In this document: one piece after another, positions 4,049 through 28,888 of the stretch
Numbering within the stretch: position 1 is the stretch's first letter
How the letters are laid out: each line of letters opens with the position of its first letter
NCBI GenBank assembly: GCA_028722305.1
Contig: JAQYHB010000033.1
Location: 1 to 64,000 of the forward strand
Source: Spirochaetales bacterium
GTDB taxonomy: Bacteria; Spirochaetota; Spirochaetia; Sphaerochaetales; Sphaerochaetaceae
Direction of reading: 5' to 3'
Length of the DNA stretch: 64,000 nt
Notes under the pieces: model-generated
What the model was told of the DNA's origin: nothing
What the model saw: only the letters and a program-made list of their open reading frames with translations
Database searches by the model: none
Translations under genes and position numbers: made by a program

Positions 4049-4067
4049 CGCCGAAGGAGATAGCAAG

Positions 4068-13486: not shown

Positions 13487-14414
13487 TGTCGGCCTCCTTC
13501 TTCGCTTGGCGCTCGAGCGCCTTTTTCTTGGCTCCACTCTGGGAAGCGCGGCTCCGCATTTCGGCCACATAGAGGCTGACGATAACGAGGATTCCGGTCA
13601 ACAGCTTGAAGTCGTTCGGGGTGATGTGGATCAGGTAGCCGTATTTGCGCCCGAAGAACATCAGCGCCTTATAGATGATTCCCCCCAGCAGGGCGCGCAG
13701 TGTGATCAGTCCGATGCGGTTGCTGGAGAAGAGGAACTCGCCAAGCATGATGCCGGCCAGTCCCTGGACGACCATACCCTGGCCGAGATTCGCGTCAGCG
13801 AAGCCCTGGTACTGGGCCAGCATGGCGCCGGATAGTCCGATCAGGCCGTTGGACAGGCAGAAGCCGATATCTTTCAGCAAAGCGGGATTCATGCCTTGGC
13901 TGATGACCATCTGCTCGTTGCTTCCCATCGCTCCGATGGCGATGCCAAGGTCGGTGCGGAAGAAAAGGTCGAACAGGCCCTTGACCAGCAGCACCAGCAG
14001 GATGGTGCCGAGCAACGAGGCGTACTCGCTGGGCAGGAAGCTGAACCATTTGGGCAGGTAGGTGTAGAGCGTGTTGATCCGCAGGAGCGGGAGGTTGGCC
14101 TTGTTGCCCAAGACTCGCAGGTTGATCGAGTAGAGCATCGTCATGGTGAGGATGCTCGCGAGCAGGCCGGGAATGTGCAACCGGTTGTGGATTTCCGCGG
14201 TTACCAGACCGCAGAGCGCGCCCCCAACGAAGGCGAGCAACATAGCGACGATGATGGGCATGCCCTTGGTGATGCAGACCGCGCAGATGGCGGCTCCCGT
14301 GGCGACGCTGCCGTCGCAGGTCAGGTCCGCCATGTCCATGATGCGGAACGAGATGAGGATTCCCAGCACCATGACCCCGAAAATGAGCCCATCGACAAAA
14401 ATACCTTCTATCAT
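13479..14414 (-). CDS. ABC transporter permease (TrpY-like)
   Basis: The 311-aa integral membrane protein has about eight hydrophobic segments, beginning MIEGIFVDGLIFGVMVLG, and the conserved block ADLTCDGSVATGAAI found in permeases paired with ABC_sub_bind proteins. The basic tail (KKKALERQAKKEAD) is cytoplasmic. The start at 14414 has GAGGT just ahead and matches the family N-terminus; the open frame upstream is not coding. A terminator-like hairpin lies between the upstream binding-protein gene and this start. Confidence 0.85.
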   Translation of the reverse strand: MIEGIFVDGLIFGVMVLGILISFRIMDMADLTCDGSVATGAAICAVCITKGMPIIVAMLLAFVGGALCGLVTAEIHNRLHIPGLLASILTMTMLYSINLRVLGNKANLPLLRINTLYTYLPKWFSFLPSEYASLLGTILLVLLVKGLFDLFFRTDLGIAIGAMGSNEQMVISQGMNPALLKDIGFCLSNGLIGLSGAMLAQYQGFADANLGQGMVVQGLAGIMLGEFLFSSNRIGLITLRALLGGIIYKALMFFGRKYGYLIHITPNDFKLLTGILVIVSLYVAEMRSRASQSGAKKKALERQAKKEADNA

Positions 14415-14426
14415 ATGTACCTCATG

Positions 14427-14455
14427 AAAAATGCCGCCGGTATCGCCCGACGGCA
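14427..14455 (-). terminator. Attenuator-like intrinsic terminator between binding protein and permease
   Basis: On the minus strand a 9-bp stem (TGCCGTCGG/CCGGCGGCA, one G-U pair, loop GCGATA) is followed by five T. It lies within the 59-nt gap between the binding-protein stop and the permease start. Partial termination here would give more binding protein than membrane components, a common arrangement in importers. Confidence 0.75.
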
Positions 14456-14473
14456 CAGTGTAGCATGTTTCAG

Positions 14474-15481
14474 TTATTTCTGGGATACCTGCTTGCCGTC
14501 TTGGATGAGGACGGCGGCATCCTTGAGCACATCGTCGCTGAAGGTGTAGCCGAGCTTCTTCGCCTGGTCCAGGTTGAGCCACAGCTCGATGTCGCTGGTG
14601 TTGGTCATGTAGACCGCGCCGTTGTCGCCGATGGTGCGGGGATCGGTTCCTTTCAGGCACTGCTCGATCACCTTGCCGGTATTGATGCCGATGGCATAGT
14701 AGTCGCAGCCCCAGGCGATCAGGAAGTTCGAATCGGGAGCAACGGACGGATCGCTGGAGAAGAGTCCTTTCTGTGCCTTGTTGCAGACCTCGTCGATGGC
14801 GGGGAAGGCGCTGATGACGGCGTTGTCGGTGGCGATATAGATGGCGTCCACACGATCGATGATCGACTGGGCAGCCATCTTGACCTCGCTGGTGTTGTTG
14901 ACGGCCACCCCGACGAATGCCACGCCAAGCTTCTCGCAGGCGGCCTTTGCCTGCTCCATCTGTACGACGCCGTTAGCCTCGCTGGAGCAGTAGATGTTGC
15001 CGATCGTCTTCGCGTTGGTCACCTTGACAAGCAACTGGATCTGGCTCTCGACCGAGTTCATATCGGAGACACCGCAGACCAGGCCGGTGTTGAGCCCGGC
15101 TTGGTTGGGATCGGTGACGGCGGAGTAGACGACCGGGATGTCGCTGAAGGTGTTGGCAAGCGACTGGGCGCTCGGGGTGGCGATGCCGACCACCAGGTCG
15201 TCCTTGTCGCTCTTGAACTTCTGGGTGATGGAATTGACCGTGGAGATGTCTCCATTGGCGTTCTGCAGGTCAAAGGTGATTTTCAAATCAGTCGTGGCCA
15301 GATAATCCTGCAGGCCCTGCTCGACCTTGTCGAGAGCCGGGTGCGGCAGCAACTTGGATACGCCAATCTTGTAGACCTTTTCCCCGGAACTCTGCTGGGC
15401 GGTTCCCTCTATCTGGCCGCCAGCGATAAGCGGAAGCGAGGCGAGAAGCGCCATCGCACACGCAAGCAACTGTTTTTTCAT
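14474..15481 (-). CDS. ABC_sub_bind-family substrate-binding protein (TrpX-like), copy 1
   Basis: The 335-aa exported protein starts with a signal peptide (MKKQLLACAMALLASLPLIA) and belongs to the ABC_sub_bind family (KIGVSKLLPHPALDKVEQG, DIPVVYSAVTDP, SEVKMAAQSIIDRVDAIYI, TDNAVISAF). Its paralogue lies just upstream and shares the same motif order throughout. Characterised relatives (TrpX) bind aromatic amino acids; that substrate is only a possibility here. It has its own extended -10 promoter. Confidence 0.87.
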   Translation of the reverse strand: MKKQLLACAMALLASLPLIAGGQIEGTAQQSSGEKVYKIGVSKLLPHPALDKVEQGLQDYLATTDLKITFDLQNANGDISTVNSITQKFKSDKDDLVVGIATPSAQSLANTFSDIPVVYSAVTDPNQAGLNTGLVCGVSDMNSVESQIQLLVKVTNAKTIGNIYCSSEANGVVQMEQAKAACEKLGVAFVGVAVNNTSEVKMAAQSIIDRVDAIYIATDNAVISAFPAIDEVCNKAQKGLFSSDPSVAPDSNFLIAWGCDYYAIGINTGKVIEQCLKGTDPRTIGDNGAVYMTNTSDIELWLNLDQAKKLGYTFSDDVLKDAAVLIQDGKQVSQK

Positions 15482-15526
15482 GATTCAAATGCCTCCATTG
15501 TGTTTGAAAACAACAATATTGAGCGA

Positions 15527-15535
15527 AGTATAGCA
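15527..15535 (-). promoter_or_regulatory. Extended -10 promoter element of binding-protein copy 1
   Basis: On the minus strand TGC-TATACT forms an extended -10 box about 45 nt upstream of the start codon. No good -35 is seen; that region is the tail of the preceding hairpin. It would let copy 1 be transcribed separately from copy 2. Confidence 0.5.
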
Positions 15536-15600
15536 CAAAGAAACCGGGCGTGTATACAAAACTATGAATAAAAATCCAGTAGTCATGCATGCACGCCCGG
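15536..15600 (-). terminator. Probable terminator after binding-protein copy 2
   Basis: Inverted arms CCGGGCGTG (15544-15552) and CACGCCCGG (15592-15600), extendable through a G-T pair, enclose a 39-nt loop. On the minus strand they are followed by TTTCTTTG. The long loop makes it weaker than a standard terminator. The promoter of copy 1 begins within its tail. Confidence 0.5.
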
Positions 15601-15630
15601 AAAGGAGGAGGAATGGACGCCTGGTCTTGC

Positions 15631-16647
15631 TCAGCGGTTCTCTATCGTCTTGCCATCCTTGACCACGTAGTTGGCCTGTGCCAGAAGGTCTGCCGGAATC
15701 TCGATGCCGAGATAGCTGGCGCTGTCCAGGTTGAAGATCAGGTCCATCAGCTTCATGTCGGTGAAGAAGACGGCTCCGATGTCCTTTGGATTTTCCCCAC
15801 GCAGCACTCTCTCGACGATTCTGCCCGACTCATACCCGTGGTTGTAGTAGTTGAAGGAGGAGCTCATGAAGAAATCGGTACCCTCGCTGGAAGTGGTGTC
15901 GGAGTTGAACAACGGCTTCTTCGCGGCGTAGCAGACCTCGTCGACGCTGGCGATTGCGCTGACCACCGTGTTGTCGATGGCGACGTACATGCCGTCGACA
16001 CGGTCGATGATCGACTGGGCGGCCATCTTCACCTCGCTGCTGTTCTGTACCGCGGCCCCGACGAAGGTGATGCCGTTGGCCTCGCAGACCTGTTTGGCGA
16101 CCTCCATCTGGTAGACGCCGTTGGCCTCGCTGGCGGTGTAGACCATGCCCATCGTCTTGATGTTGGTCGCCTTGAAGAACATCTCAAGCTGTTCCTTCTG
16201 GGGGCTCTTGTCGCTAGCGCCACAGACATTGGTCTCGGTCTGGTGGTCGTAATCGGCGATCAGGCCGGCGGAGAGCGGATCGGTGACACCGCTGAACACC
16301 ACCGGGATGTCCTTGAAGGTGGTGGCGAGGGCTTGGGCCGGAGGAGTGGCGATGCCGACGACGGCGTCGCACTTGGAGTCCTTGAATTTCTGTGCGATCG
16401 AGATGGCGGTGGAGACATCCCCGTTGCAGTTCTGCCGGTCATAGGTAATGGAAAGGTCGGTCGTCGCAAGGTAATCCATGATGCCCTGCTCGATGGCGTC
16501 CAGAGCCGGATGGCTCATCATCTTCGAGATGCCGACGACATACGTTTTCTGGGTGGCACCCGCTTGGGCGGTCTCCTTCGTTCCCTGGGCGAAGACCATG
16601 GAAGCGATAGCAAAAAGCGCGATACTCGCGATGAATGTCTTTTTCAT
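15631..16647 (-). CDS. ABC_sub_bind-family substrate-binding protein (TrpX-like), copy 2
   Basis: The 338-aa exported protein has a signal peptide (MKKTFIASIALFAIASMVFA) followed by QGTKETAQ, and the family motifs YVVGISKMMSHPALDAIEQ, DIPVVFSGVTDP and SEVKMAAQSIIDRVDGMYV. It is clearly a tandem duplicate of copy 1, diverged in the C-terminal lobe (for example SSSFNYYNHGYESGRIVERV), so the two may bind different ligands for one permease/ATPase pair. First gene of the minus-strand operon, with a strong promoter. Confidence 0.87.
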   Translation of the reverse strand: MKKTFIASIALFAIASMVFAQGTKETAQAGATQKTYVVGISKMMSHPALDAIEQGIMDYLATTDLSITYDRQNCNGDVSTAISIAQKFKDSKCDAVVGIATPPAQALATTFKDIPVVFSGVTDPLSAGLIADYDHQTETNVCGASDKSPQKEQLEMFFKATNIKTMGMVYTASEANGVYQMEVAKQVCEANGITFVGAAVQNSSEVKMAAQSIIDRVDGMYVAIDNTVVSAIASVDEVCYAAKKPLFNSDTTSSEGTDFFMSSSFNYYNHGYESGRIVERVLRGENPKDIGAVFFTDMKLMDLIFNLDSASYLGIEIPADLLAQANYVVKDGKTIENR

Positions 16648-16904: not shown

Positions 16905-18197
16905 ATGAAAAAACAGTATATGCATATGACATTTGCGCTGTGTGTCGCCGCATTGCTTGCAGGTTGCGGAAAAAAGCAAGCCGAGACTCCGGCGCCACAA
17001 CCTGTCCAGACTGCGCCGCAGCCGACCATTTCCGCCCTTCCGGCTCCTACCCCGGCTCCCGCACCTGAAGTTCCTGCGAAGAAGGAAGTCCGTGGACCGG
17101 CGACCGTCTATCCGATTGCCAGCGCGTTTCAGGGACAGGATGCCGTTGATCAGTGCTACAATGCCCGTGAGTGGAAGAAGGGTTTCAGCTTGAAGGAAAT
17201 CGTCGAGGACAACTTCTGGTGGCAACCGGGGGCCGAGACGGTCTTTTCCACCGGCACGCTTGGGGACCCGTACCTGGACAGCGCTCCCTACGCAAAAGGG
17301 GCCAGCCGCCTGGTTGTCGACAAGTACGTCACCTTCATGAAGGATGACGAGAGCCAGAAGTTCGATGTTTTCACCGGCAAGGGGCAGAGCGCGACCTATG
17401 ACTGCAACTATAAGGTATATATGGTCGATGGCCCTGAGGCGCTGATTTTCGTCCCCTTTGAGGAAATCGCGCTGGAAAGCCTCTTCGACATGAACGAGAA
17501 CATGTATCTTTCCGGCGCCAACAGCTATGACATCTACGACGTCGACGGAACCAGGACCACCATCGACGAGAATGCTTTCTGTGAGGGCAAGCTGGTCAAA
17601 ACCGCACCTGACAAAATCGACGCGGTTTTCGGCCGGATGGTCGTCGAGAATGTCCGGGACATCGCCGTTGGAGGCATGAGTTCCTCGCTCGAGCCGCTGG
17701 ATGAGGGAATCGCCCATCTGGTGATTGCCCAGAACGCCAAGGGTGTGTACGGGAAGGAAGCCCCCTATCTCGGAAATGTAGCCGGTGCTTACTACGAAGG
17801 CTATGTCCTGGGAACGTTGGCCTCCCGCTATGGTCTTGCTCCCACGACCGTCACGGTCACCAGCGAGGCAGGGGATGAGACCTTCGCCGCCAGCGAGATT
17901 GCCGACAGGCGCCTGATGTACCTGAAGAAGAGCGATTCCTACGCCTTGCTGAAGGAACACCAGATCAAAGGAGAGAGCGGAGACGCGCTCATGGGTGTCT
18001 CCAAGGTCGTGGCGGGGGATGCCGCGTTTGTCGTGGCGGCAGGGGACGCCTCGCTGGCTGACCTGCTCTCGGCTTCCGGTACCCAAGGCAACGATTTCGA
18101 GGTGACCGCCCTTGACGGGAGTGTCAAGACTGTGGCCGATGGGGATCTGGCCTCTGTCAAAGTTTCTGACGTGAAATCGGTCACTATGGTTGACTGA
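16905..18197 (+). CDS. Predicted lipoprotein of unknown function, first gene of the poly-gamma-glutamate operon
   Basis: The 430-aa protein has a lipoprotein signal (LLAGC at about residues 17-21) and then a Pro/Ala-rich linker (residues 25-60) that would hold the folded part away from the membrane. The rest shows no family I recognise. It is 61 nt upstream of the gamma-glutamyltransferase gene, which has the same signal-plus-Pro/Ala-linker design, so the two are probably surface partners. A substrate-binding or scaffolding role is inference only. Shine-Dalgarno AAGGGGG precedes the ATG. Confidence 0.7.
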   Translation: MKKQYMHMTFALCVAALLAGCGKKQAETPAPQPVQTAPQPTISALPAPTPAPAPEVPAKKEVRGPATVYPIASAFQGQDAVDQCYNAREWKKGFSLKEIVEDNFWWQPGAETVFSTGTLGDPYLDSAPYAKGASRLVVDKYVTFMKDDESQKFDVFTGKGQSATYDCNYKVYMVDGPEALIFVPFEEIALESLFDMNENMYLSGANSYDIYDVDGTRTTIDENAFCEGKLVKTAPDKIDAVFGRMVVENVRDIAVGGMSSSLEPLDEGIAHLVIAQNAKGVYGKEAPYLGNVAGAYYEGYVLGTLASRYGLAPTTVTVTSEAGDETFAASEIADRRLMYLKKSDSYALLKEHQIKGESGDALMGVSKVVAGDAAFVVAAGDASLADLLSASGTQGNDFEVTALDGSVKTVADGDLASVKVSDVKSVTMVD

Positions 18198-18216
18198 GAC
18201 TTTTCTTCTTGCCATA

Positions 18217-18238
18217 CCGCACCCAGCGATGGGTGTGG
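18217..18238 (+). promoter_or_regulatory. GNRA-loop hairpin between lipoprotein and gamma-glutamyltransferase genes
   Basis: CCGCACCCA-GCGA-TGGGTGTGG forms a 9-bp stem with one G-U pair, capped by a GNRA tetraloop. No T-run follows, so it is not a terminator. It could be an mRNA-stability or processing element setting the ratio of the two lipoproteins. Confidence 0.4.
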
Positions 18239-18261
18239 CGTAGTATTGACGAGGTGATGTG

Positions 18262-20172
18262 ATGAAACGGATGCGTACGATTGTCCTGGCGTCGGCTCTT
18301 GCCCTGCTTGCCGTCGGTTGTGGAAAGAGGGTGGATACGCGGGTGGCGGAAAGTGTTCCTGCAAGTCCGGTGACCGAGACGGTGGTTGCCCAAGCGCAGG
18401 ATGCGCCAGAGGCTGAAACTCCGGTTCCAGTGCAAAGCACGGCTGAGGCACCTGCACCCGAACAGGTCGAACCTCCGGTCCAGGAGGATGTGCTGAGAAA
18501 GCGGATGCAGCCCTCGCTTCCGTTTGTCACCGACGCGTATGGGTGTGGCGCGGCAGGTATGCATGGAGCCGCGGCCAGCGCAAGCCCTCTGGCGAGCCAG
18601 ATTGCTGTGCAGATTCTGGAAGAGGGTGGCAACGCCGTGGATGCCGCGGTCGCCATGATCTACGCCGTAGGACTGTTGGAACCTGCGGCCAGCGGTATCG
18701 GCGGATGCGGACAGATGGTGGTCTACCTTGCCGACCAGGACAAGTACGAGACGATTGAGTATATGGAGAAGGCTCCGGCCGCGGTGGTCGCGGGCCAGAC
18801 CGATACCTCCACTTCGAGCAATCCGCCATCGACCCAGGCGATTGCCATTCCCGGCACGGTCCATGGCACGTTGTCTGCTTTGGAGAAGTGGGGGACCATG
18901 ACCCCCGAAGAGGTGCTTGCGCCTGTGATCGCCCTTGCCCGCGGAGGCTTCCGGGTCACCGACCGCTGGAACGCCAATATTGAGGGACGCTACGAGAACC
19001 TGAGCGCCTATCCGTATTCGATGGGGCTCTACACGGACGACGGTTTCCTGTACAGCGAAGGGGATGTGGTCACCAACAACGATCTCGCCGACACCCTCGA
19101 GCTGATTGCCCGTGAGGGAATCAAGGGGTTCTACGACAGCGAGTTTACCGACAAGATGGTGGATTATATCCGGAGCCAAGGCGGTATCGTGACCCATGCC
19201 GATTTCGCCAACTACACCTCGGTAGTCCGAAAGCCGATCTCCACCACCTACCGTGGACACAGGATCTATACGGTCGGTGGTCCTTCGACCGGTGGAGCGG
19301 CTTTGCTTGAGGCGTTGAACATCACCGAGCATTTCGACCTTGCCTCCTATGGATTCGACAACCCGATCACCACCCAGATCAAGGCGGAAGCCTTTATCCT
19401 CGGACAGAAGGACGGCAGGGCCTATATGGGAGATCCTGATTATTACCATCTTCCGGTCGACGAGATCATCAGCAAGGAGTACGGAGACAAGCGGGCGGGC
19501 TTGATTTCTCCGGGTAAGAAAATGCGCCTTGCACCGGCGGGAAGACATCGCGTGACGCTGACCAGCACTGGTGAGGAGGCCTTTGCCAGCATGGCGGTAG
19601 ACCAGGGTGGCACCACCCACATGGTCGTCATGGATGCCAAGGGGAACGTGGTCTCCACGACCAACACCAACGGTATCAACTTCGGTTCCTCTCTGGCTGT
19701 GCCGGGCACGGGCTTTGTCTTCAATGCCCATTTGGCAAACCTGACAAACAATCCCAACAATACCGTCAACGTGCTGATGCCGGGTATCCGCGTCTGCTCG
19801 ACCATTTGTCCCACGATTGTTGCCGGTGCCGACGGCAGGCCGGAAATCGCCGTCGGCTCTCCGGGCAACTGGTGTACCGCCTCCGCCACCTACGAGACCA
19901 TCGTGAACTGCATTGATTTCGGTATGGATGTGGCCAGCGCGGTCAACGCTCCCCGTTCCTGGAACGCGGGAGGGTCGAAGGACCAGATCTACTTGGAGGG
20001 AAGCTATAGTCCTGAGACCATCAAGGGAATGCAGGACTTGGGGTTCAATACGTTGGACAGTGACCTGCCATGGAGTTCCCATGTGGGCAGCGTCTCTGCT
20101 GCTGAGATTCGCGGCGGCGTCTATTATGCCGTCGGTGACAACCGCCGCCACTATGGCGCTTCCGCCTATTGA
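18262..20172 (+). CDS. Lipoprotein gamma-glutamyltransferase (Ggt/CapD-like)
   Basis: This 636-aa Ntn-hydrolase of the gamma-glutamyltransferase family would cleave or transfer gamma-glutamyl bonds outside the cytoplasmic membrane. It has a lipobox (LLAVGC), a Pro/Ala/Glu linker to about residue 75, the large-subunit motifs EEGGNAVDAAVAM and EPAASGIGG, the autoprocessing site GGTTHMVV with predicted catalytic Thr451, and the small-subunit VSTTNTNGINFGS motif. In a PgsBC operon it is analogous to CapD or PGA depolymerase, either anchoring or degrading poly-gamma-glutamate. The ATG at 18262 was preferred to the GTG one codon earlier because of its spacing to GAGGTG. Confidence 0.88.
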   Translation: MKRMRTIVLASALALLAVGCGKRVDTRVAESVPASPVTETVVAQAQDAPEAETPVPVQSTAEAPAPEQVEPPVQEDVLRKRMQPSLPFVTDAYGCGAAGMHGAAASASPLASQIAVQILEEGGNAVDAAVAMIYAVGLLEPAASGIGGCGQMVVYLADQDKYETIEYMEKAPAAVVAGQTDTSTSSNPPSTQAIAIPGTVHGTLSALEKWGTMTPEEVLAPVIALARGGFRVTDRWNANIEGRYENLSAYPYSMGLYTDDGFLYSEGDVVTNNDLADTLELIAREGIKGFYDSEFTDKMVDYIRSQGGIVTHADFANYTSVVRKPISTTYRGHRIYTVGGPSTGGAALLEALNITEHFDLASYGFDNPITTQIKAEAFILGQKDGRAYMGDPDYYHLPVDEIISKEYGDKRAGLISPGKKMRLAPAGRHRVTLTSTGEEAFASMAVDQGGTTHMVVMDAKGNVVSTTNTNGINFGSSLAVPGTGFVFNAHLANLTNNPNNTVNVLMPGIRVCSTICPTIVAGADGRPEIAVGSPGNWCTASATYETIVNCIDFGMDVASAVNAPRSWNAGGSKDQIYLEGSYSPETIKGMQDLGFNTLDSDLPWSSHVGSVSAAEIRGGVYYAVGDNRRHYGASAY

Positions 20173-20194
20173 CGCGACAAGAGGAGAAATGCAT

Positions 20195-20797
20195 ATGCAT
20201 GCTATGAGAAAATGGATTGGAGTGGTGGTGATGGCGTGTGCGGTGAGCCTGCATGCCGGCGCCTACACCATGCAGACCAGCAAGACCAACCATATCGTCA
20301 ACGTGGGGACGATTGACAAGAGCCTTTTCCAGACACCTGTCTTCGTCACTTCGTTCGGGCAGAGTACCGACGGCGCCATGCTGCAGACGGTGATGAAACG
20401 TATCGGGGTACCGTTCACCTACAATCCGACTGCCACGGATAGCGAGGTGGCAGGGGCCAAGACGGTGGTGGTCGCCGTCGGCGCCAGCACCAAGGGGCTG
20501 GGGGCCGCCGGCGTTTCCGAGTCTGACGAGGTGAGCCGCGCCAAGGCTGTGATGGCGCGCATCCAGCAGGACGGTATTCCCGTGATTTTCGTCCATATCG
20601 GAGGCGAGACGCGCCGCGGGGCTTTGAGCGACTCCCTGGCCGACTTGGTCCTGCCCTCCGCCAGGTATCTGGTGGTCAAGGAGGACGCCAACTTCGATGG
20701 GAAGTTCACCGATTACGCGAGGGCCAGCGGCAAGCCGATTTCGCTGATTTTCGCGACCAGGGACACCATCGAGGTCTTCACGAAGTTGCTGAAATAA
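20195..20797 (+). CDS. Exported protein of the DUF6305 type
   Basis: The 200-aa protein has an N-terminal signal peptide (VVVMACAVSLHAGA) and a compact alpha/beta domain with the pattern TPVFVTSFGQSTDG, KTVVVAVGASTKGLG, GIPVIFVHIGGE, KPISLIF. It resembles the DUF6305 proteins I recall from poly-gamma-glutamate/TRAP gene clusters; function unknown. Three ATGs are possible (20189, 20195, 20204). 20195 has the best spacing (8 nt) to GAGGAG. It lies between the gamma-glutamyltransferase and the TRAP permease, suggesting a periplasmic accessory role. Confidence 0.65.
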   Translation: MHAMRKWIGVVVMACAVSLHAGAYTMQTSKTNHIVNVGTIDKSLFQTPVFVTSFGQSTDGAMLQTVMKRIGVPFTYNPTATDSEVAGAKTVVVAVGASTKGLGAAGVSESDEVSRAKAVMARIQQDGIPVIFVHIGGETRRGALSDSLADLVLPSARYLVVKEDANFDGKFTDYARASGKPISLIFATRDTIEVFTKLLK

Positions 20798-20819
20798 ACC
20801 GTGTCAGGGGGAATGCCGC

Positions 20820-22097
20820 ATGGATATCGAATTGGTCTGCCTGCTGGTGATGGTCGCCTCGTTCTTGCTCGCCAATCTCGCCCTGAGGCTACCGGTGAGC
20901 CTTTCCATGGTGATCGGGGCGGTGGCCGGGGCTCTGGCAGGCGGCCAGGGAGTGCCCCTCCGCCAGCTGTACGAGGGGACGTTCGCCTATGTGGACACCA
21001 TGCTGATCATCACCACCGCCATGTTTTTCATGGCGGTAACCCAGAAGTCGGGCGCCCTCGAGGCGTTGAACGCCGCCATCGTCACCCACTTCGCCAGGGT
21101 GCCTGCTTTGATGCTGGTGCTGCTGATGCTGGTGGTCATGTTTCCCGGAATGATTACCGGAAGCTCGACCGCCGCGGTCCTTTCGTCAGGGGCTTTGGTG
21201 GCTCCGGTCCTTCTCTTGGTGGGAATCCCCAAAGAGAAGGCGGGCGCCATCATCGCCATCGGCGCCATCATGGGCATGGCTGCGCCCCCGATCAATATCC
21301 CGGCGATGCTCATCGGAGGGGGAGTCGATATGCCCTATATCGGTTTTGGGCTGCCGCTTCTGCTTCTGACGGTTCCTTGCGCGGTTTTCTCTGTCCTCTT
21401 TCTTGGTCTTCCCTACGCGAGACACCTCGACGTGGAGAAGCTGAAAGGTTCCCTGAACACGGAAATAGGCGCGACTTACGGACTTCGCCTGTACCTTCCC
21501 ATCATTGTCCTGGTGGTCCTTTTGGTGGCAAGCAAGCTGGTGCCTGCCTTCCCCCAGCTGGGAACCTGTTTGGTTTTTCTGATTGCCAGCGCCATAGGCC
21601 TTTTCACCGGACGGAAATACAACGTCTGGGACATGTGCCTTGAGGCGATGGAGACCACCATTCCGGTTCTGGCCAAGCTGGTGGGAGTGGGTATGTTCAT
21701 CCAGATCCTGACGCTGGTCGGGTCGAGGGGATGGATCGTGGTCAGCTGTCTGGCTCTTGGCATCGTCTTCGTCCATGTCGCCGCCTTTACCATCATGCCG
21801 GCCTTCGGGGCGATCAGCTCCTACGGCGCAGCCTCGGTCATCGGGGTGCCGTTCCTCTTGGTCATGATCACCCACGGTGCCTGCAATGACATCATCATCG
21901 CCGCGGTGCTCTCGTTTGCCTGTTGCTTGGGGGATTTGATGCCGCCGACTGCCTTGGCGGGCAACTATGCTGCCCAGATTGTAGGGCTTCCGTACCGCAG
22001 GGTGCTGAAGCATTGCGCCATTCCTGTCGTGGTCTGTATCGCCGTGGCGGCGCTATGCATGCGCTGTTCGACCGCGCTCGGATTTTTGACGGTATAG
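20820..22097 (+). CDS. TRAP-type large permease subunit (DctM-like)
   Basis: The 425-aa membrane protein has about 11-12 spans and the DctM hallmarks: early VSLSMVIGAVAGAL, FFMAVTQKSGALEALN, FPGMITGSSTAAVLSSG, AIMGMAAPPINIPAML and a late GDLMPPTALAGNYAA repeat. TRAP permeases use ion gradients to take up organic acids. Neither a DctP-type binding protein nor a full-length DctQ is encoded beside it; a 49-aa membrane peptide follows instead. In this operon the likely cargo is glutamate, gamma-glutamyl fragments or the deacylase product (inference). Confidence 0.82.
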   Translation: MDIELVCLLVMVASFLLANLALRLPVSLSMVIGAVAGALAGGQGVPLRQLYEGTFAYVDTMLIITTAMFFMAVTQKSGALEALNAAIVTHFARVPALMLVLLMLVVMFPGMITGSSTAAVLSSGALVAPVLLLVGIPKEKAGAIIAIGAIMGMAAPPINIPAMLIGGGVDMPYIGFGLPLLLLTVPCAVFSVLFLGLPYARHLDVEKLKGSLNTEIGATYGLRLYLPIIVLVVLLVASKLVPAFPQLGTCLVFLIASAIGLFTGRKYNVWDMCLEAMETTIPVLAKLVGVGMFIQILTLVGSRGWIVVSCLALGIVFVHVAAFTIMPAFGAISSYGAASVIGVPFLLVMITHGACNDIIIAAVLSFACCLGDLMPPTALAGNYAAQIVGLPYRRVLKHCAIPVVVCIAVAALCMRCSTALGFLTV

Positions 22098-22108
22098 GGA
22101 GGCCTGCC

Positions 22109-22258
22109 ATGCTGATGCGCATCTATCTTGTGCTCGTCGCGTTTGTCGTGTTGCTGATCTTTGTCTGCATGTTACGCAAGAAGGGCAACCTCTTTTTCCA
22201 GATTGACGCGGCAATGGTCCTGGTGACCCTGCTATTACGCCTATTCCGGGTAAAGTGA
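22109..22258 (+). CDS. 49-aa single-span membrane peptide
   Basis: The frame MLMRIYLVLVAFVVLLIFVCMLRKK... begins at an ATG behind AGGGAGG, 11 nt after the TRAP permease gene and just before the deacylase gene. It has one strong membrane span (residues about 4-22), a basic turn and a second hydrophobic stretch. It occupies the place of a small TRAP subunit but is far too short for DctQ. The good Shine-Dalgarno and tight packing support a real gene; its function is unknown. Confidence 0.6.
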   Translation: MLMRIYLVLVAFVVLLIFVCMLRKKGNLFFQIDAAMVLVTLLLRLFRVK

Positions 22259-22265
22259 GGTTCCT

Positions 22266-24302
22266 ATGAGACGCCCGATTCCACGCCATATCCTTTCCGC
22301 GTCAGTCCTGACGGTAATCGTCCTGGTGGTGACTCTCCACCTCGCCAAAGTCTTCCGCTCCGCCTTGGTCCCTGAACCGATCTATCCGGGCCCCGGGGTG
22401 ACCGACGTAGCCATGCTGAGCGACTGGATGCCTGCTTTGAAGGGAACCCGCGGCGACACCGAGGTCTATGTTCTGGACAGTGGGGTCGAGGGCGCCGGGA
22501 TGCTGGTGCTCGGAGGCACCCATCCCAACGAGCCATCCGGCTTCCTCTCCGCGGTGGCCTTGATCGAGTCATGCCAGCCCACCGAGGGAGTGTTGTACGT
22601 CATTCCCCGGGCAAACAACAGCGCCTTCACCTGTACCGACCCCCAGGAAGCGGCTCCGATGCGCTACCAGATCGATACCCCGTATGGCGAGCGCTGGTTC
22701 CGCTTTGGCAGCCGCGCTACCAATCCAATCGACCAGTGGCCGGACAGCGAGGTCTACATCCACGCCTCCAGCGGACAACAGCTTTCGGGTAGCGAGACCC
22801 GCAACCTGAACCGCGCCTATCCTGGGCGCGAGGATGGGACTTTCACCGAAAAGGTCGCCTACGGCATCACCAGCCTGATCCGCGACAAGCACATTTCCAT
22901 CACCGTCGACCTGCACGAGGCATCGCCCGAGTACACGACGGTCAACGCGATTGTCGCCCATGAGCGGGCCCTCGACCTGGCAAACATCACGCTGATGATG
23001 GTGGAGGACCAGATGAAGGTCACGGTGGAGAAGTCCCCTTCCAACCTGCATGGGCTGACCCACAGGGAGCTGGGCGATTACACCGATACCTTGGCGTTGC
23101 TGATGGAGACGGCGAACGCTTCCCAGGGGCGGCTCCACGGGGCGATTGACGCCGACCTGGTGGTTACAGGCAAGGATAAGTTCTATGCCAGAGCCGCTAC
23201 GTATGGCGCGGTGACGGTACCCTATACCGATGCGGGGATCAGCATCGACGAACGGTGCGCAAGGCATCTGACCTGCATCGCCAGCTTCGCGGAAATGTAC
23301 GACGGGGATGATGGCTTCATCAGCCTGGGCGACATACCCTCCTACGATGAGATCATCGAAGGTGGAATCGGCCAGATGCTCGCCGGTCCGGAGGGACAGC
23401 GGGCCGCTTTGGGTTCGATTCCCGTTCTCCAGGATCCGATGCTCCAGAAGAGTCCGCGCGCCATCGAGGTTTCCCAGGAATCTGGAAAAACAGTCCAGTA
23501 TCTGGATATCTCGGGAGAACAGGTCGCGTGGGACGGGACGTGGATCATCGAGCCGGAAAGCCAGCTGGATGGACTGACGATGGACTACGGCGATGTCGGA
23601 TACGAGAAGTTCAATCATTCCTATCCGGTGTTTGTTTCCACAAGAAAATTGCTGGAAGGAACCCCTGAGGAGGTGGTGGAATACCACATCCACTCCGACA
23701 ATCCCGGTCCCTCCGTCTATATCGTCGCGGGTATCCATGGCGACGAGCGGGCTGCCTGGTTTGCCGGCCATCTGCTCCAGCGGAAGGTCACCATCAAAAG
23801 CGGGGACCTGTATATTATCGCGCCTGCGAACGCGGCGGGCGCGCGGAGACGGAGCAGGTATGTGGAGGGAACGCTGGACATGAACCGTTCCTTCCCTGGG
23901 AATCTCGACGGAAACGTGGCTGAACAGGCTGCCTACGCGATTTTCTCCCGTATTCAGGAGGTCAAGCCGGAGCTGCTCCTCGACCTGCATGAGGCAATCA
24001 TCTACAAGCAGTCGCGGGATTTTCTGGGGAGCACCTATATCTTCTCGATCCTTGATGGCATCGAGGACCTGTATTTCGATATGCTCTTCGCCACCCAGGA
24101 CGGGACGCTCTGCCACAACGAGTTCGCCTCGACCGGACCGGGCCCGAAGGGCAGCGTCAATGCCGAGGTTTCCGGCCGGCTTGGCATTCCCGCCATCACC
24201 GTGGAGACGTTCCGGGGATTTCCGATGGAACGGCGGGTCTACGACCAGCTGGATACCGTCCATTATGTGCTTTCCTACGAAGGTATGTACGATGAGGAGT
24301 AA
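22266..24302 (+). CDS. Tandem-domain succinylglutamate desuccinylase/aspartoacylase-like zinc hydrolase
   Basis: This 678-aa protein has an N-terminal membrane anchor (about residues 10-28) and two M14/AstE-type domains. Domain 1 has GGTHPNEPSG (His86, Glu89), NRAYPG and VDLHEASPEY. Domain 2 has AGIHGDERAA (His491), MNRSFPG and LDLHEAIIYK, and ends in VETFRGFP. Both carry a zinc HxxE plus a later His, so both could be active. Such enzymes cleave amide bonds on amino acids or peptides. Beside a gamma-glutamyltransferase and PgsB/PgsC it may trim gamma-glutamyl chains or deacylate the product. The duplicated architecture in one chain is unusual for AstE. Confidence 0.78.
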   Translation: MRRPIPRHILSASVLTVIVLVVTLHLAKVFRSALVPEPIYPGPGVTDVAMLSDWMPALKGTRGDTEVYVLDSGVEGAGMLVLGGTHPNEPSGFLSAVALIESCQPTEGVLYVIPRANNSAFTCTDPQEAAPMRYQIDTPYGERWFRFGSRATNPIDQWPDSEVYIHASSGQQLSGSETRNLNRAYPGREDGTFTEKVAYGITSLIRDKHISITVDLHEASPEYTTVNAIVAHERALDLANITLMMVEDQMKVTVEKSPSNLHGLTHRELGDYTDTLALLMETANASQGRLHGAIDADLVVTGKDKFYARAATYGAVTVPYTDAGISIDERCARHLTCIASFAEMYDGDDGFISLGDIPSYDEIIEGGIGQMLAGPEGQRAALGSIPVLQDPMLQKSPRAIEVSQESGKTVQYLDISGEQVAWDGTWIIEPESQLDGLTMDYGDVGYEKFNHSYPVFVSTRKLLEGTPEEVVEYHIHSDNPGPSVYIVAGIHGDERAAWFAGHLLQRKVTIKSGDLYIIAPANAAGARRRSRYVEGTLDMNRSFPGNLDGNVAEQAAYAIFSRIQEVKPELLLDLHEAIIYKQSRDFLGSTYIFSILDGIEDLYFDMLFATQDGTLCHNEFASTGPGPKGSVNAEVSGRLGIPAITVETFRGFPMERRVYDQLDTVHYVLSYEGMYDEE

Positions 24303-24305
24303 GCC

Positions 24306-24563
24306 GTGAAGAGCCAGGAAATCGCCCAGGATTTCGCACTCCGCGCCGCCAAGGCAGGCAACCGGATGGAACGGGCTCTCTGCCTGCACGACGCGCTTAC
24401 GGTGCTCGGACTCTGTCCGGATGCCGCGCGTCTTTTGGGGCTGAGCGATGGTGCGTATCAGGCAAAGGTGGAGGCCTGCCGTGAGGACGGCGAAGGGGGC
24501 GAGGGCTTTTCCGAACTCGAGCTCGAGCAATTGCAGCACTTTCTTGAGCAGGCCCTCGCATGA
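24306..24563 (+). CDS. Small hypothetical protein upstream of pgsB
   Basis: An 85-aa acidic, mostly helical protein without recognised motifs. It starts with GTG at 24306, 3 nt after the deacylase gene, and overlaps pgsB by 4 nt, so it is held in the operon by coupling. No signal peptide or membrane segment, hence cytoplasmic. It may be an accessory factor of the synthase; nothing in the sequence proves that. Confidence 0.6.
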   Translation: MKSQEIAQDFALRAAKAGNRMERALCLHDALTVLGLCPDAARLLGLSDGAYQAKVEACREDGEGGEGFSELELEQLQHFLEQALA

Positions 24564-25612
24564 AGGTCGTTCCCATCTCGCTGGCTTGTCTGCTTCTGGC
24601 GGGTGCTGTCGAGCGCCTTGCCCTGCATCGTTCTCTCCAGAGGATTCCCATCCGTGTGGTGGTCAATGGAACACGGGGCAAGTCGACGGTGGTCCGCCTG
24701 TTGGCCGCCGCCCTGCGCGAGGCGGGAATCCCCGCGCTGGGACGCTCGACGGGAAGCGCGGCGGAGTTGCTGCTCCCCGATGGGTCGACACGTGCGATAA
24801 AGCGTAGGGGGGTAGTCAATCTCGTCCGGGAGCAACGCCATCTGGCCCGCCTGGCGAACGTTCTCGGGGTCCGGGCCTTGGTCTGCGAGTGCTCCGCCAT
24901 CAGGCCTGAGCTGCAACGGGTCTTCCAGCGGCAACTGGTGGAGCCGACCTTGACTCTGATCACCAACAGCTATGCGGACCACGTGGACCAGATGGGAGAG
25001 ACCAGAGACTCGACAGCGGACGTGCTGGCCTCAGGTGTTCACCGGTTCCTCACTACCGATCCGCTGCTGGGTTCTTTGCCTGGGGCGGTGGTCGTGCCTG
25101 ACTTTTCCGTTCCTTCCCGGATTCCCCGGTGGGTCCATCCCGATTGCTACCGGATTGCGCTTTCTGCCTGTACGGAGCTCGGAATTCCGCAAGAGGTCGC
25201 CATCCAGGGTATGTGCAACGTACAGGGGGATATCGGGATGGAAGAGGATCTTGTCGTGGGAGGCAAGCGCTTCATCAACGCCTTGGCACGCAACGATACC
25301 GCCACGACACGGCAGTTGCTCGCAACCCTCGACCTGTCGGAGACCTCCATCGTCTTTGCCAACCGCAAGGACCGGGAGTTCCGTCTGGAGCGCTTTGCCG
25401 GGTGCTTCCAGTCGCTGGGGGTGGACAGCCTGTTCGTCATCGGGGACCACCCGGCGCTCTGCGCGAGGGTCTTCCGCGCCCATGGCATGCATGCGCTTTG
25501 CGTCCCGTTTCCGGAAATCGTGGCGCGGTGTCGCCAGACGGTGGTGCTGACGGGCAATATCAAAGGAGCGGGAGAGTGGCTGCTCTCCTTCCTGGAGGAG
25601 CAAATGCGATGA
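24560..25612 (+). CDS. pgsB: Poly-gamma-glutamate synthase subunit PgsB (CapB)
   Basis: This 350-aa Mur-ligase-like ATP-dependent ligase extends poly-gamma-glutamate on the inner face of the membrane. It has an N-terminal hydrophobic segment (residues 4-18), the characteristic P-loop GTRGKST at 37-43, and later blocks NLVREQRHLARLANVLGV, CECSAIRPELQ and TNSYADHVDQMG that mark PgsB rather than the folate/Mur ligases. It overlaps both neighbours by 4 nt and is followed by pgsC, as in known PGA synthases. Confidence 0.9.
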   Translation: MKVVPISLACLLLAGAVERLALHRSLQRIPIRVVVNGTRGKSTVVRLLAAALREAGIPALGRSTGSAAELLLPDGSTRAIKRRGVVNLVREQRHLARLANVLGVRALVCECSAIRPELQRVFQRQLVEPTLTLITNSYADHVDQMGETRDSTADVLASGVHRFLTTDPLLGSLPGAVVVPDFSVPSRIPRWVHPDCYRIALSACTELGIPQEVAIQGMCNVQGDIGMEEDLVVGGKRFINALARNDTATTRQLLATLDLSETSIVFANRKDREFRLERFAGCFQSLGVDSLFVIGDHPALCARVFRAHGMHALCVPFPEIVARCRQTVVLTGNIKGAGEWLLSFLEEQMR

Positions 25613-26034
25613 ACCAAGTGCTTTTGATTCTCAGCATCGTCTTCGGTTGCCTCTACACCGAGTTGACCGGACTTCTTACGGGAGGGTTGGTCAGTGCCGG
25701 GTACCTATCCATGCATCTGTCCAACCCGGTAAGGATTGCCACCACTGTGGCTGTTTCGTTCGTCACTTACCTATGCGTACTCGGGCTCTCGCAGCTCTTG
25801 ATCGTCTATGGCCGTCGTCGTTTTGTCCTGTGCCTGCTCATCGGCATGGTGCTCTCCGCTCTGCCCGGGATGGCGCCGCTCTCCCTGGACGTCCGTGTCA
25901 TCGGTCTGGTCGTTCCCGGCCTGATTGCCAACGACATGGTCCGACAGGGACCGGTGAAAACCTTGGTCGCGCTTGCCTCCCTGACCTGTGTCTTGGCATT
26001 GGTCGCCTTGATCCTGCTCCACTTGGAGGCCTAG
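25609..26034 (+). CDS. pgsC: Poly-gamma-glutamate biosynthesis protein PgsC (CapC)
   Basis: The 141-aa integral membrane protein has about four spans. It shows the PgsC signature near the N-terminus (FGCLYTELTGLLTGGLVSAG) and a late VIGLVVPGLIANDMVRQG segment. It partners PgsB in the membrane synthase. The start is the ATG overlapping the pgsB stop; the long open frame upstream is a shadow of pgsB. Confidence 0.9.
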   Translation: MNQVLLILSIVFGCLYTELTGLLTGGLVSAGYLSMHLSNPVRIATTVAVSFVTYLCVLGLSQLLIVYGRRRFVLCLLIGMVLSALPGMAPLSLDVRVIGLVVPGLIANDMVRQGPVKTLVALASLTCVLALVALILLHLEA

Positions 26035-26035
26035 C

Positions 26036-27079
26036 GTGCGGCTCAGGTACCCTCTTGTCTCCTTGTTGGTGCTGGCCGCGGGGCTCGTGGCCGGGCTGTG
26101 CACCTTGCGCTCTGCAGACCTGCCTGAACGTGGGGTGATGGAACGGAGCTTCCGTCGGATGCAAGAGGCGGAGGCGTCTATCAAAGCCTACGTGGAAGGC
26201 CAGGGAATCGCGCTTGAGGCGGAAGACCGGGAAGGGACCTATCTGATTGGACCCGAGCTCTCGCCGCTTGTCACCACGATGGGATATCCGGATGTCAAAC
26301 GGACCACCCTGAGTCCGGACAGTGCCGCCTTGCTGGTCCGGCTGTTCACCGAGGCAGGCTTGAGAGAAGGGGATGTGGTCGGGGTGGGCACGAGCGGGTC
26401 GTTTCCCGGATATCTGGTCGCCACCCTCTGCGCGGCCGAAGAGATGGGGCTCAAGGTACGCTTGGCCGCCTCGCTCGGGGCATCGATGTATGGAGCTACA
26501 AGGCCGGAACTCTCCATCCTGACCATTCTGAATCTCCTGCAACAGGATGGGTTCCATTTCGAAGTGGTCGCCGTATCGCCTGGTGGCGATGGAGACCGGG
26601 GAAAGGGTGCCTACGACGGGCTCGTGTATGACGATACAAAGCAGCTTTCCCGATCTTTGCTTCACGCAAGCGGATTCCCGGTTCTTGACGAAGAGGACCT
26701 TGGGTCCAACATTCGGAAACGAAAGGCCCTTTTCGGCCCGATTTCCTGTTTTGTCAATATTGGTGGAGCGGAACCCAATGTGGGTAATGGTGCGGAAATC
26801 CTTGGTCTCGCTCCGGGCTTGGTTGTCCAGAAGCGGAATCTTCCGCTTCGACCTGACCGGGGTCTGGTCTTTGACTACCTGGCCGAGGGCATTCCCGTGT
26901 TGAATCTCTTGCAGGTACGGAAACTGGCATCCCGCTATGGGATTCCCTTCGACCCGAGTCCGTTGCCATCCAATCCGTCTGGTCCCCTGTACCAGAGCCG
27001 GATCGGTCCCTCTTGGATTCCGCTTGCGACCTTGTTGCTGGCGGTGGGAATTCTGCTCTGGGGAAAGGAAAGGAGATAG
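26036..27079 (+). CDS. pgsW: Poly-gamma-glutamate system protein PgsW
   Basis: The 347-aa protein has an N-terminal membrane anchor (SLLVLAAGLVAGLCTL) and a C-terminal hydrophobic segment (IPLATLLLAVGILLWG). Between them is a conserved domain with VGVGTSGSFPGYLVA, RLAASLGASMYGAT and FVNIGGAEPNVGNG, the pattern of the 'poly-gamma-glutamate system protein' family found with pgsB/pgsC in bacteria that lack PgsA. GTG start, 1 nt after pgsC. Exact biochemical role unknown. Last gene of the operon; the tRNA gene converges on it. Confidence 0.8.
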   Translation: MRLRYPLVSLLVLAAGLVAGLCTLRSADLPERGVMERSFRRMQEAEASIKAYVEGQGIALEAEDREGTYLIGPELSPLVTTMGYPDVKRTTLSPDSAALLVRLFTEAGLREGDVVGVGTSGSFPGYLVATLCAAEEMGLKVRLAASLGASMYGATRPELSILTILNLLQQDGFHFEVVAVSPGGDGDRGKGAYDGLVYDDTKQLSRSLLHASGFPVLDEEDLGSNIRKRKALFGPISCFVNIGGAEPNVGNGAEILGLAPGLVVQKRNLPLRPDRGLVFDYLAEGIPVLNLLQVRKLASRYGIPFDPSPLPSNPSGPLYQSRIGPSWIPLATLLLAVGILLWGKERR

Positions 27080-27080
27080 G

Positions 27081-27113
27081 AATACAAAAATGGCCACACC
27101 GTCGGTGTGGCCA
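27081..27113 (-). terminator. Intrinsic terminator of the tRNA-Arg gene
   Basis: A perfect 10-bp stem TGGCCACACC/GGTGTGGCCA with a 3-nt loop. On the minus strand it is followed by TTTTTGTATT. It begins 2 nt after the tRNA discriminator base. On the plus strand no T-run follows, so the PGA operon has no clear terminator of its own here. Confidence 0.85.
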
Positions 27114-27115
27114 CA

Positions 27116-27190
27116 TGGCTCTAGTGCGATTCGAACGCGCGACCTTCTCCTCCGGAGGGAGACGCTCTAATCCAGCTGAGCTATAGAGTC
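27116..27190 (-). tRNA. tRNA-Arg (anticodon CCG)
   Basis: Folded by eye on the minus strand: acceptor GACTCTA/TAGAGCC, D arm GCTC/GAGC, anticodon stem TCTCC/GGAGA with loop CTCCGGA (anticodon CCG, reads CGG), a 5-nt variable loop, T arm GCGCG-TTCGAAT-CGCAC and discriminator A. CCA is not encoded. A20 and C35, the arginine identity bases, are present. Two A-C mismatches stand out: position 2-71 in the acceptor and 50-64 in the T stem. Each is one transition away from a normal pair, so the gene may be slightly degraded or unusual. Confidence 0.9.
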
Positions 27191-28281: not shown

Positions 28282-28857
28282 TTATGTGGACAGCTTGTCG
28301 GGCAGTTGTACGTGCTGCCTTGCCATCCGGTCGAGCAGACGGGACGGATCGTTGTCCACCAACAGCGTCTGCTGGCATCTTGGGTCAAGAAAGCCTGTCT
28401 CGACGCTTTTGTGGAGCATGTCCAACAGCGGCTGCCAGTAGCCGTCCACATCCAGGAGCGCCACCGGTTTGTGGTGGTAGCCAAGCTGCCTCCAAGTATA
28501 GGCTTCCATCAGCTCCTCCATGGTTCCGATGCCGCCGGGGAGGGCGAGGAAGCCGTCGCCCAACTCGTACATCTTCTCCTTGCGGCTGTGCATGCCGTCG
28601 GTGATGATCAGCTGGCTTTCCACCTGCTTGGTCCTTACCTGGGGCAAGTCCATCGCTTGCGGCAGGACACCGATCGTGGTGCCCCCGAGACTTTTGAGCG
28701 TGTCCGCGACGACTCCCATGAGTCCCCGGTTCCCCCCTCCGTAGACCAGGTCAAGGCCGGACTTCCTCATGGCCTTGGCAAGATTGACTGCCATGTCCCG
28801 GTAGATGGGGCTACTCCCCATCGTGCTTCCACAAAATACGGTAAGACGGTGCATCAT
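28282..28857 (-). CDS. LOG-family protein (nucleoside 5'-monophosphate phosphoribohydrolase)
   Basis: A protein of about 191 aa with the Rossmann motifs of the LOG/YvdD family: VFCGSTMGSSP, GGGNRGLMG and PGGIGTMEEL. The last two hold the catalytic Arg and Glu. Relatives release the base from nucleoside monophosphates. The start was placed at 28857 (MMHRLTVFCG) rather than the ATG three codons upstream, because a -10 box TACAAT ends 7 nt before it and overlaps the upstream ATG, which suggests a leaderless mRNA. Confidence 0.85.
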   Translation of the reverse strand: MMHRLTVFCGSTMGSSPIYRDMAVNLAKAMRKSGLDLVYGGGNRGLMGVVADTLKSLGGTTIGVLPQAMDLPQVRTKQVESQLIITDGMHSRKEKMYELGDGFLALPGGIGTMEELMEAYTWRQLGYHHKPVALLDVDGYWQPLLDMLHKSVETGFLDPRCQQTLLVDNDPSRLLDRMARQHVQLPDKLST

Positions 28858-28864
28858 GTTCCCC

Positions 28865-28888
28865 ATTGTACCGGTTTTGCTCTACACT
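28865..28888. promoter_or_regulatory. Divergent leaderless promoters of the LOG gene and a hypothetical gene
   Basis: Minus strand: TACAAT (28865-28870) 7 nt before the LOG ATG, with TTTCCA 17 nt upstream. Plus strand: TACACT (28883-28888) 6 nt before the ATG at 28895. The two -10 boxes are only 12 bp apart, so their polymerase footprints must exclude each other. No Shine-Dalgarno is seen for either gene. Confidence 0.5.

What the first reader, a model, noticed from the sequence alone, without database searches (positions are those of the whole stretch)
16905..27079. Ten-gene poly-gamma-glutamate operon joining synthase, surface transferase, deacylase and TRAP permease
PgsB (GTRGKST P-loop), PgsC and PgsW form a synthase core without PgsA. 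The same operon encodes a lipoprotein gamma-glutamyltransferase with an intact autoprocessing Thr, a tandem-domain zinc deacylase, a lone TRAP large permease, a DUF6305-like exported protein, an unknown Pro-linker lipoprotein and two very small proteins. The set suggests a cycle of making, anchoring or cutting, and re-importing gamma-glutamyl polymer, not just a capsule.
Basis: partly seen in the sequence, partly recalled or inferred. Interest (0 to 1): 0.75.

Follow-up and report, generated by a model that had tools for sequence, protein, structure and literature searches.

The report
Gamma-glutamate polymer synthesis and salvage operon
This is a gut-spirochaete operon that joins the genes for making a gamma-linked glutamate polymer to genes that appear to cut it outside the cytoplasm and take the pieces back up; in its class the uptake gene set was found only in genomes that also carry the synthase, which ties several unnamed proteins to one testable job.

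Summary
All ten genes are present at 16905-27079 and are coding. PgsB, PgsC and PgsW follow a lipoprotein, a gamma-glutamyltransferase-family (GGT) lipoprotein, DUF6305, a DctM-type permease, a 49-residue membrane protein, a double-domain zinc deacylase and an 85-residue protein. No PgsA was found.

The accessory set is a real, conserved module. Among 393 Spirochaetota genomes, PgsC and PgsW occur in the same 24. DUF6305 occurs in 15, all within those 24, and these are every PgsW carrier of the window's class. The 49-residue protein belongs to an undescribed microprotein family (47-58 residues, ending LLR-x-L-x-K) lying between DctM and deacylase. Three sister genomes carry genes 1-7 in the same order as a separate operon, with the deacylase as two genes, so the window operon probably arose by joining module and synthase plus a gene fusion. 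In other lineages an unrelated Ntn hydrolase, peptidase C69, takes the GGT's place.

Anchoring is not supported: the window GGT keeps its catalytic Thr but has lost the canonical donor-binding Arg, Asn and Asp (Asp433 is Asn, a change that abolishes transfer but not hydrolysis in E. coli GGT). Polymer, activities and transport remain untested.

The parts
16905..18197 (+). g1: 430-aa lipoprotein with Pro/Ala-rich linker, unknown fold; first gene of the module
   Evidence: Lipobox AALLAGC; no Pfam/NCBIfam family; homologues (106-163 bits with g1 as phmmer query) in the same position before GGT in L124, L125, L127
18259..20172 (+). g2: GGT-family Ntn-hydrolase lipoprotein (start probably ATG at 18262)
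   Evidence: PF01019 409 bits, TIGR00066 over cut-off; catalytic Thr kept, canonical Arg114/Asn411/Asp433 replaced by Met/Gly/Asn; lid loop missing
20195..20797 (+). g3: DUF6305 exported protein (signal peptide; start 20195 or 20204)
   Evidence: PF19823 151 bits; found only in PgsW genomes, 15 of 15; AF2 model alpha/beta, pLDDT 80.6
20820..22097 (+). g4: DctM-type large permease, no DctQ/DctP beside it
   Evidence: PF06808 45.5 bits; 11 hydrophobic segments; alignment A6
22109..22258 (+). g5: 49-aa membrane microprotein of an undescribed family between DctM and deacylase, C-terminus LLR-x-L-x-K
   Evidence: Found in all but one of the DctM-deacylase gaps searched by hand (the exception is L032) and in 13 loci as a BLAST cluster; alignment A7; genome survey
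22266..24302 (+). g6: membrane-anchored zinc deacylase with two AstE/AspA-type domains (about 1-400 and 400-678)
   Evidence: PF24827, two stretches; HxxE, NR and DLHE motifs in both halves; two separate genes in L124, L125, L127, the second a lipoprotein in L124 and L125
24306..24563 (+). g7: 85-aa soluble protein, overlaps pgsB by 4 bases
   Evidence: Syntenic weak homologues of 103 and 85 aa in L124 and L125 (15-21 bits); conserved in sister species
24560..25612 (+). g8: PgsB-type amide ligase (GTRGKST P-loop, one N-terminal membrane helix)
   Evidence: TIGR04012 E 4e-57, below cut-off
25609..26034 (+). g9: PgsC (about 5 hydrophobic segments)
   Evidence: TIGR04011 over cut-off, PF14102 105 bits
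26036..27079 (+). g10: PgsW, alpha/beta domain between two terminal membrane helices
   Evidence: TIGR04332 257.5 bits; AF2 pLDDT 94.5, pTM 0.90; best PDB matches TM no higher than about 0.3; basic flanks RLR/KERR suggest the domain faces outward
27090..27114 (.). terminator-like hairpin (near-palindrome) between pgsW and the tRNA
   Evidence: 11-bp stem
27116..27190 (-). tRNA-Arg(CCG), 3' border of the operon
   Evidence: ARAGORN

Best explanation
The operon codes for making, trimming and salvaging a gamma-glutamyl polymer (probably poly-gamma-glutamate). PgsB and PgsC polymerise and pass out the chain with PgsW, whose domain faces away from the cytoplasm, in PgsA's place. Outside the inner membrane a GGT-family hydrolase (C69 peptidase in other lineages) and a double zinc deacylase shorten the chain. 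Products are captured by DUF6305 and imported by a DctM permease with a 49-aa membrane partner. Shown: gene content, conserved module, strict co-occurrence with PgsBCW, fusion of two deacylase genes, motifs. Inferred: polymer identity, localisation, order of steps, direction of transport.
For: PgsC and PgsW occur in the same 24 of 393 genomes. DUF6305 occurs in 15 genomes, all inside those 24 (about 3e-21 if genomes were independent). The microprotein is found in all 15, with one strong hit elsewhere. Module order is conserved with the synthase or as a separate operon in PgsW genomes. An Ntn hydrolase accompanies the module: GGT or C69. A deacylase cutting N-acyl-glutamate-type amides suits a chain in which every residue after the first is an N-acylated glutamate; the C-domain's weaker hits MpaA and M99/Csd4 cut gamma-glutamyl bonds in murein peptides (chemistry from general knowledge). 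PgsBC without PgsA makes PGA in B. subtilis (PMC6029982). B. subtilis GGT is reported to trim PGA fragments to glutamate (PMC8062742).
Against: No polymer, expression or activity data exist. PgsB scores below its curated cut-off, so another gamma-linked product is possible. R114L kills E. coli GGT (PMC8062742) and the window GGT has Met there, so it may have changed substrate altogether. DctM direction is not shown. DUF6305 resembles no known binding protein. Nine PgsBCW genomes of other classes lack DUF6305, so the module is not needed for synthesis. Co-occurrence counts are not phylogenetically independent.
Confidence: 0.6

Rival explanations
1. The module scavenges gamma-glutamyl peptides of other origin (murein fragments with gamma-D-Glu-mDAP bonds, or dietary gamma-glutamyl peptides in the gut); PgsBCW is linked for a regulatory reason and works on something else.
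For: Module stands apart from PgsBCW in several genomes; deacylase has weak hits to murein-peptide hydrolases MpaA and M99; many hosts are gut or rumen bacteria.
Against: A free-standing scavenging module should also occur in genomes without PgsBCW; of 369 such genomes only one fragmented genome has a piece of it, on a 3.9-kb contig.
Confidence: 0.17
2. Capsule operon of the cap type: GGT acts like CapD and attaches polymer to the cell surface; the deacylase trims, and the permease supplies glutamate.
For: GGT beside pgsB/pgsC recalls the B. anthracis cap operon; the GGT is a lipoprotein and lacks the lid loop.
Against: GGT is replaced by C69 peptidase in many lineages; in the window clade position 433 is Asn, or Leu in L125, and D433N in E. 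coli GGT abolishes transpeptidation but not hydrolysis (PMC8062742); Arg114 and Asn411 are also lost.
Confidence: 0.12
3. DctM, DUF6305 and the microprotein form the exit route for polymer or oligomers, standing in for PgsA, and are not importers.
For: PgsA is missing and a permease sits in the operon; transporters of this superfamily can run either way (general knowledge).
Against: Nine PgsBCW genomes of other classes have no DUF6305; PgsBC alone suffices to secrete PGA in B. subtilis; DctM-type permeases are known for small solutes with exported binding proteins (general knowledge).
Confidence: 0.08

Closest known systems
Bacillus pgsBCA(E) with ggt and pgdS (PGA synthesis and stationary-phase degradation)
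   Same: PgsB and PgsC; GGT trimming of PGA reported in B. subtilis (PMC8062742)
   Different: Here PgsW instead of PgsA; one operon; zinc AstE/AspA deacylase, DctM, DUF6305 and microprotein added; GGT donor pocket changed
Bacillus anthracis cap operon with CapD
   Same: GGT-family protein encoded with PgsB/PgsC-type genes
   Different: CapD anchors the capsule; here Asp433 is Asn and the slot is filled by peptidase C69 elsewhere; no CapA
TIGR04332 'poly-gamma-glutamate system protein' (PgsW) loci
   Same: PgsBCW core, PgsW over cut-off
   Different: The library names only the protein; the DUF6305-DctM-microprotein-deacylase module and the GGT/C69 alternation were not found described in the papers searched
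TRAP transporters (DctP-DctQ-DctM)
   Same: DctM-type large permease with an exported partner
   Different: No DctP or DctQ in the operon; 47-58-aa microprotein and DUF6305 instead
PghP zinc gamma-PGA hydrolases (phage and B. subtilis)
   Same: Zinc hydrolases of carboxypeptidase-A-like fold acting on gamma-glutamyl bonds (PMC4497714)
   Different: g6 belongs to AstE/AspA, membrane-anchored, two domains; PGA activity untested

Membership tests
PgsBCA poly-gamma-glutamate synthase | PgsB over curated cut-off | tested here: not met
   TIGR04012 193.6 bits against 222.7, still the clear best hit; P-loop present
PgsBCA poly-gamma-glutamate synthase | PgsC/CapC | tested here: met
   TIGR04011 97.9 (96.45), PF14102 105 (27)
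PgsBCA poly-gamma-glutamate synthase | PgsA/CapA (PGA_cap) | tested here: not met
   None in operon; the only genome hit is a 5'-nucleotidase
PgsBCA poly-gamma-glutamate synthase | makes gamma-linked polyglutamate | not testable with these tools
   needs chemistry
PgsW (TIGR04332) | family score and adjacency to pgsBC | tested here: met
   257.5 bits (cut-off 100); same 24 genomes as PgsC
Gamma-glutamyltransferase | family profile | tested here: met
   TIGR00066 379.3 (357.85); PF01019 409
Gamma-glutamyltransferase | N-terminal-nucleophile Thr | tested here: met
   Thr at E. coli position 391
Gamma-glutamyltransferase | donor pocket Arg114, Asn411, Asp433, Ser462-Ser463 | tested here: not met
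   Met, Gly, Asn, Ser-Thr; canonical in modules L092, L108, L136, L137, L138
CapD-type anchoring transferase | transpeptidation to the cell wall | tested here: inconclusive
   Only indirect: residue 433 is Asn; activity not testable here
TRAP transporter | DctM large permease | tested here: met
   PF06808 45.5 (23.8)
TRAP transporter | DctQ and DctP partners | tested here: not met
   None in the operon or module loci; microprotein and DUF6305 instead
AstE/AspA zinc deacylase | zinc and substrate motifs | tested here: met
   PF24827 84.7 bits; HxxE, NR and DLHE motifs in both halves
DUF6305 | family score | tested here: met
   151 bits (25)

The most novel reading that the evidence does not exclude
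DctM, DUF6305 and the 47-58-residue microprotein form a new class of three-part transporter, with a microprotein in place of DctQ and DUF6305 in place of DctP, dedicated to recovering gamma-glutamyl oligomers. With exchangeable Ntn hydrolases it makes a bacterial polyglutamate storage-and-recall cycle that moves between phyla as a unit.
Probability: 0.4. Interest if true: 0.75.

Novelty: new variant of a known kind. Interest (0 to 1): 0.62.

Why it matters
PGA is known mainly as a Bacillus capsule or secreted polymer. Here many gut and environmental spirochaetes and some Clostridia encode a synthase whose genomes also carry, in the spirochaete class without exception in this sample, a specific outside-hydrolysis and uptake kit. 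That turns DUF6305, an unnamed microprotein family, PgsW and a deacylase clade into one functional system with direct biochemical tests, and suggests that the polymer may be a recoverable glutamate or nitrogen store and not only a coat.

Tried and rejected
(1) PgsA elsewhere in the genome: the sole PGA_cap hit (L122) is a 5'-nucleotidase with PF02872, rejected. (2) PgsW as a SIS-domain protein, suggested by the motif GTSGSFPG and weak MurR hits: the good AF2 model gave no convincing PDB match, left open. (3) DUF6305 as a TRAP-type or other binding protein: only generic Rossmann-like matches, not shown. (4) GGT and C69 mutually exclusive genome-wide: rejected. G008 and G025 have both (C69 in the PgsBCW locus, GGT in the separate module) and G321 and G391 carry distant C69s; the alternation holds at the level of a module. 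(5) PgsW without PgsBC in L025-L028: rejected, pgsC lies just beyond the fetched edge. (7) Papers on DUF6305, PgsW or spirochaete PGA: none relevant found. (8) First DUF6305 alignments held a mistyped row, replaced by A5 before folding and genome search; the PDB sequence search used the first one.

Full report
WHAT IS THERE. Ten + strand ORFs fill 16905-27079. Pfam and NCBIfam identify g2 as GGT, g3 as DUF6305, g4 as DctM, g6 as AstE/AspA, g8-g10 as PgsB, PgsC and PgsW; g1, g5 and g7 match no family above cut-off. PgsB is below its curated cut-off (193.6 against 222.7). A sister species (L014, uncultured Spirochaetaceae RUG023) has the same ten genes in the same order, 86-93% identical, differing mostly at third codon positions, g5 and g7 included. 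The operon ends at a hairpin and a tRNA-Arg on the other strand.

SYNTHASE CORE. In 393 Spirochaetota genomes PgsW (TIGR04332) and PgsC (PF14102 over cut-off) are found in exactly the same 24. PgsA is missing: the one PGA_cap hit in this genome is a 5'-nucleotidase. PgsW folds with high confidence (pLDDT 94.5) as an alpha/beta domain between two terminal membrane helices. Basic residues outside both helices (RLR, KERR) place the domain outside the cytoplasm by the positive-inside rule (inference), where PgsA's domain also lies. No solved structure resembles it convincingly. B. subtilis can make PGA from pgsBC alone (PMC6029982), so absence of PgsA is no obstacle.

THE ACCESSORY MODULE IS REAL. 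Named loci from Spirochaetales, Clostridia and a Rhodobacteraceae bin show DUF6305-DctM-small ORF-deacylase next to pgsBCW (in the Rhodobacteraceae contig DUF6305 is a fragment before pgsB and DctM-microprotein-deacylase follow pgsW). A DUF6305 profile rings in 15 of the 393 genomes, all within the 24, and these are all PgsW genomes of the window's class; the nine from other classes lack it. If genomes were independent this would be about 3e-21; they are not, but 11 genera are involved. Minimal PgsBCW loci exist, so the module is not needed for synthesis itself.

A MICROPROTEIN FAMILY. g5 is not an isolated small ORF. Of 17 DctM-deacylase gaps examined by hand, 16 hold a 47-58-aa hydrophobic protein ending in LR followed by a few residues and mostly a final K, the Rhodobacteraceae locus included; no such ORF was found in L032. 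Thirteen loci gave it as a BLAST cluster; alignment. A profile finds it in all 15 DUF6305 genomes at E below 1e-6 and strongly in one other (G229), where it lies in a DctM-microprotein-deacylase-C69 fragment on a 3.9-kb contig. It sits where a TRAP system would have DctQ; that it acts as a permease subunit is inference.

HOW THE OPERON AROSE. Sister genomes G025, G008 and G027 have a separate operon: g1-like protein, GGT, [DctM', microprotein', deacylase'], DUF6305, DctM, microprotein, deacylase, second deacylase and, in G025 and G008, a g7-like protein, with no pgsBCW in it (G027's contig ends in the second deacylase). Their pgsBCW lies elsewhere, in G008 and G025 with C69 peptidases. The window has the same order minus the bracketed trio, with the two deacylases fused (N half 72-76% and C half 52-59% identical to the separate genes) and pgsBCW attached. 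The simplest reading is the joining of module and synthase into one operon. G380, G399 and G414 carry a compact GGT-DUF6305-DctM-microprotein-deacylase operon apart from pgsBCW.

GGT OR C69. C69-type loci carry one to four Peptidase_C69 genes between deacylase and pgsB or pgsW. GGT-type modules occur in the window's genus, G321, G391, G294, G363, G380, G399, G407 and G414. Both families are Ntn hydrolases (general knowledge), so a hydrolytic step, not transpeptidation, appears conserved. The window GGT clade keeps Thr391 but has Met/Leu114, Gly411, Asn/Leu433, Thr463, Asn484, whereas L092, L108, L136, L137 and L138 are canonical at 114, 411, 433 and 462-463. In E. coli GGT D433N abolishes transpeptidation and keeps 82% hydrolysis, R114L is inactive, and hydrolase-only GGTs of extremophiles have Ser at 114 (PMC8062742). 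A hydrolase, perhaps with an altered substrate, is therefore more likely than an anchoring transferase.

MECHANISM. Signal peptides, lipoboxes and membrane anchors put g1, g2, g3 and g6 outside the inner membrane. Proposed flow: PgsBCW makes and exports the chain; g2 and g6 shorten it (every bond of PGA joins a gamma-carboxyl to the amino group of a glutamate, so each residue after the first is an N-acyl-glutamate, the bond type of AstE substrates); DUF6305 captures products; DctM with g5 imports them. Inferred throughout: substrate, order, direction.

ALTERNATIVES. Scavenging of unrelated gamma-glutamyl peptides is disfavoured by near-absence of the module from PgsBCW-less genomes. Anchoring is disfavoured by the GGT pocket and the C69 swap. 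Export by DctM is disfavoured by module-free PgsBCW genomes. None is excluded without biochemistry.

LIMITS. Most genomes are metagenome bins; contigs often end inside loci; the phylum survey is a sample; module membership was called with profiles built here. G391's GGT is split by a stop. The literature search covered open-access PMC only.

Noticed in passing
L095 (G391) 2627-4402: GGT of this module is split by an in-frame TAG; either a pseudogene, an assembly error or read-through.
   Followed up: no
L094 (G407) 5253-6544: DctM appears in two overlapping frames, a possible frameshift; the same genome has two further loci with GGT, deacylase and DUF6305 or DctM (L126, L144).
   Followed up: partly
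L012, L013, L025, L027, L028: C69 peptidase genes are tandemly duplicated up to four times, interleaved with an unannotated exported family of about 120-225 aa (cluster c9).
   Followed up: no
L124, L125, L127: A second, more divergent DctM-microprotein-deacylase trio sits inside the separate module, suggesting two transporters with different specificity.
   Followed up: partly
L143 (G229), 3.9-kb contig: DctM-microprotein-deacylase-C69 in a genome where no PgsW was found: the one exception to co-occurrence, possibly an assembly gap.
   Followed up: yes
L093 10899-16339: pgsBCW followed by genes that read like a glutamate-cysteine-ligase-type enzyme, an ATP-grasp enzyme and a C39-like peptidase; a different gamma-glutamyl neighbourhood worth a look (read by eye only).
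   Followed up: no
L110 50-853: A PgsBCW locus without DctM has a lipoprotein AstE/AspA deacylase directly before pgsB.
   Followed up: partly
window 13479-16647 (-): Divergent ABC transporter genes with two consecutive ABC_sub_bind binding proteins and a BPD_transp_2 permease upstream of the operon.
   Followed up: partly
window 28282-28866 (-): Reads like a LOG-family (lysine decarboxylase-like) protein; not checked.
   Followed up: no
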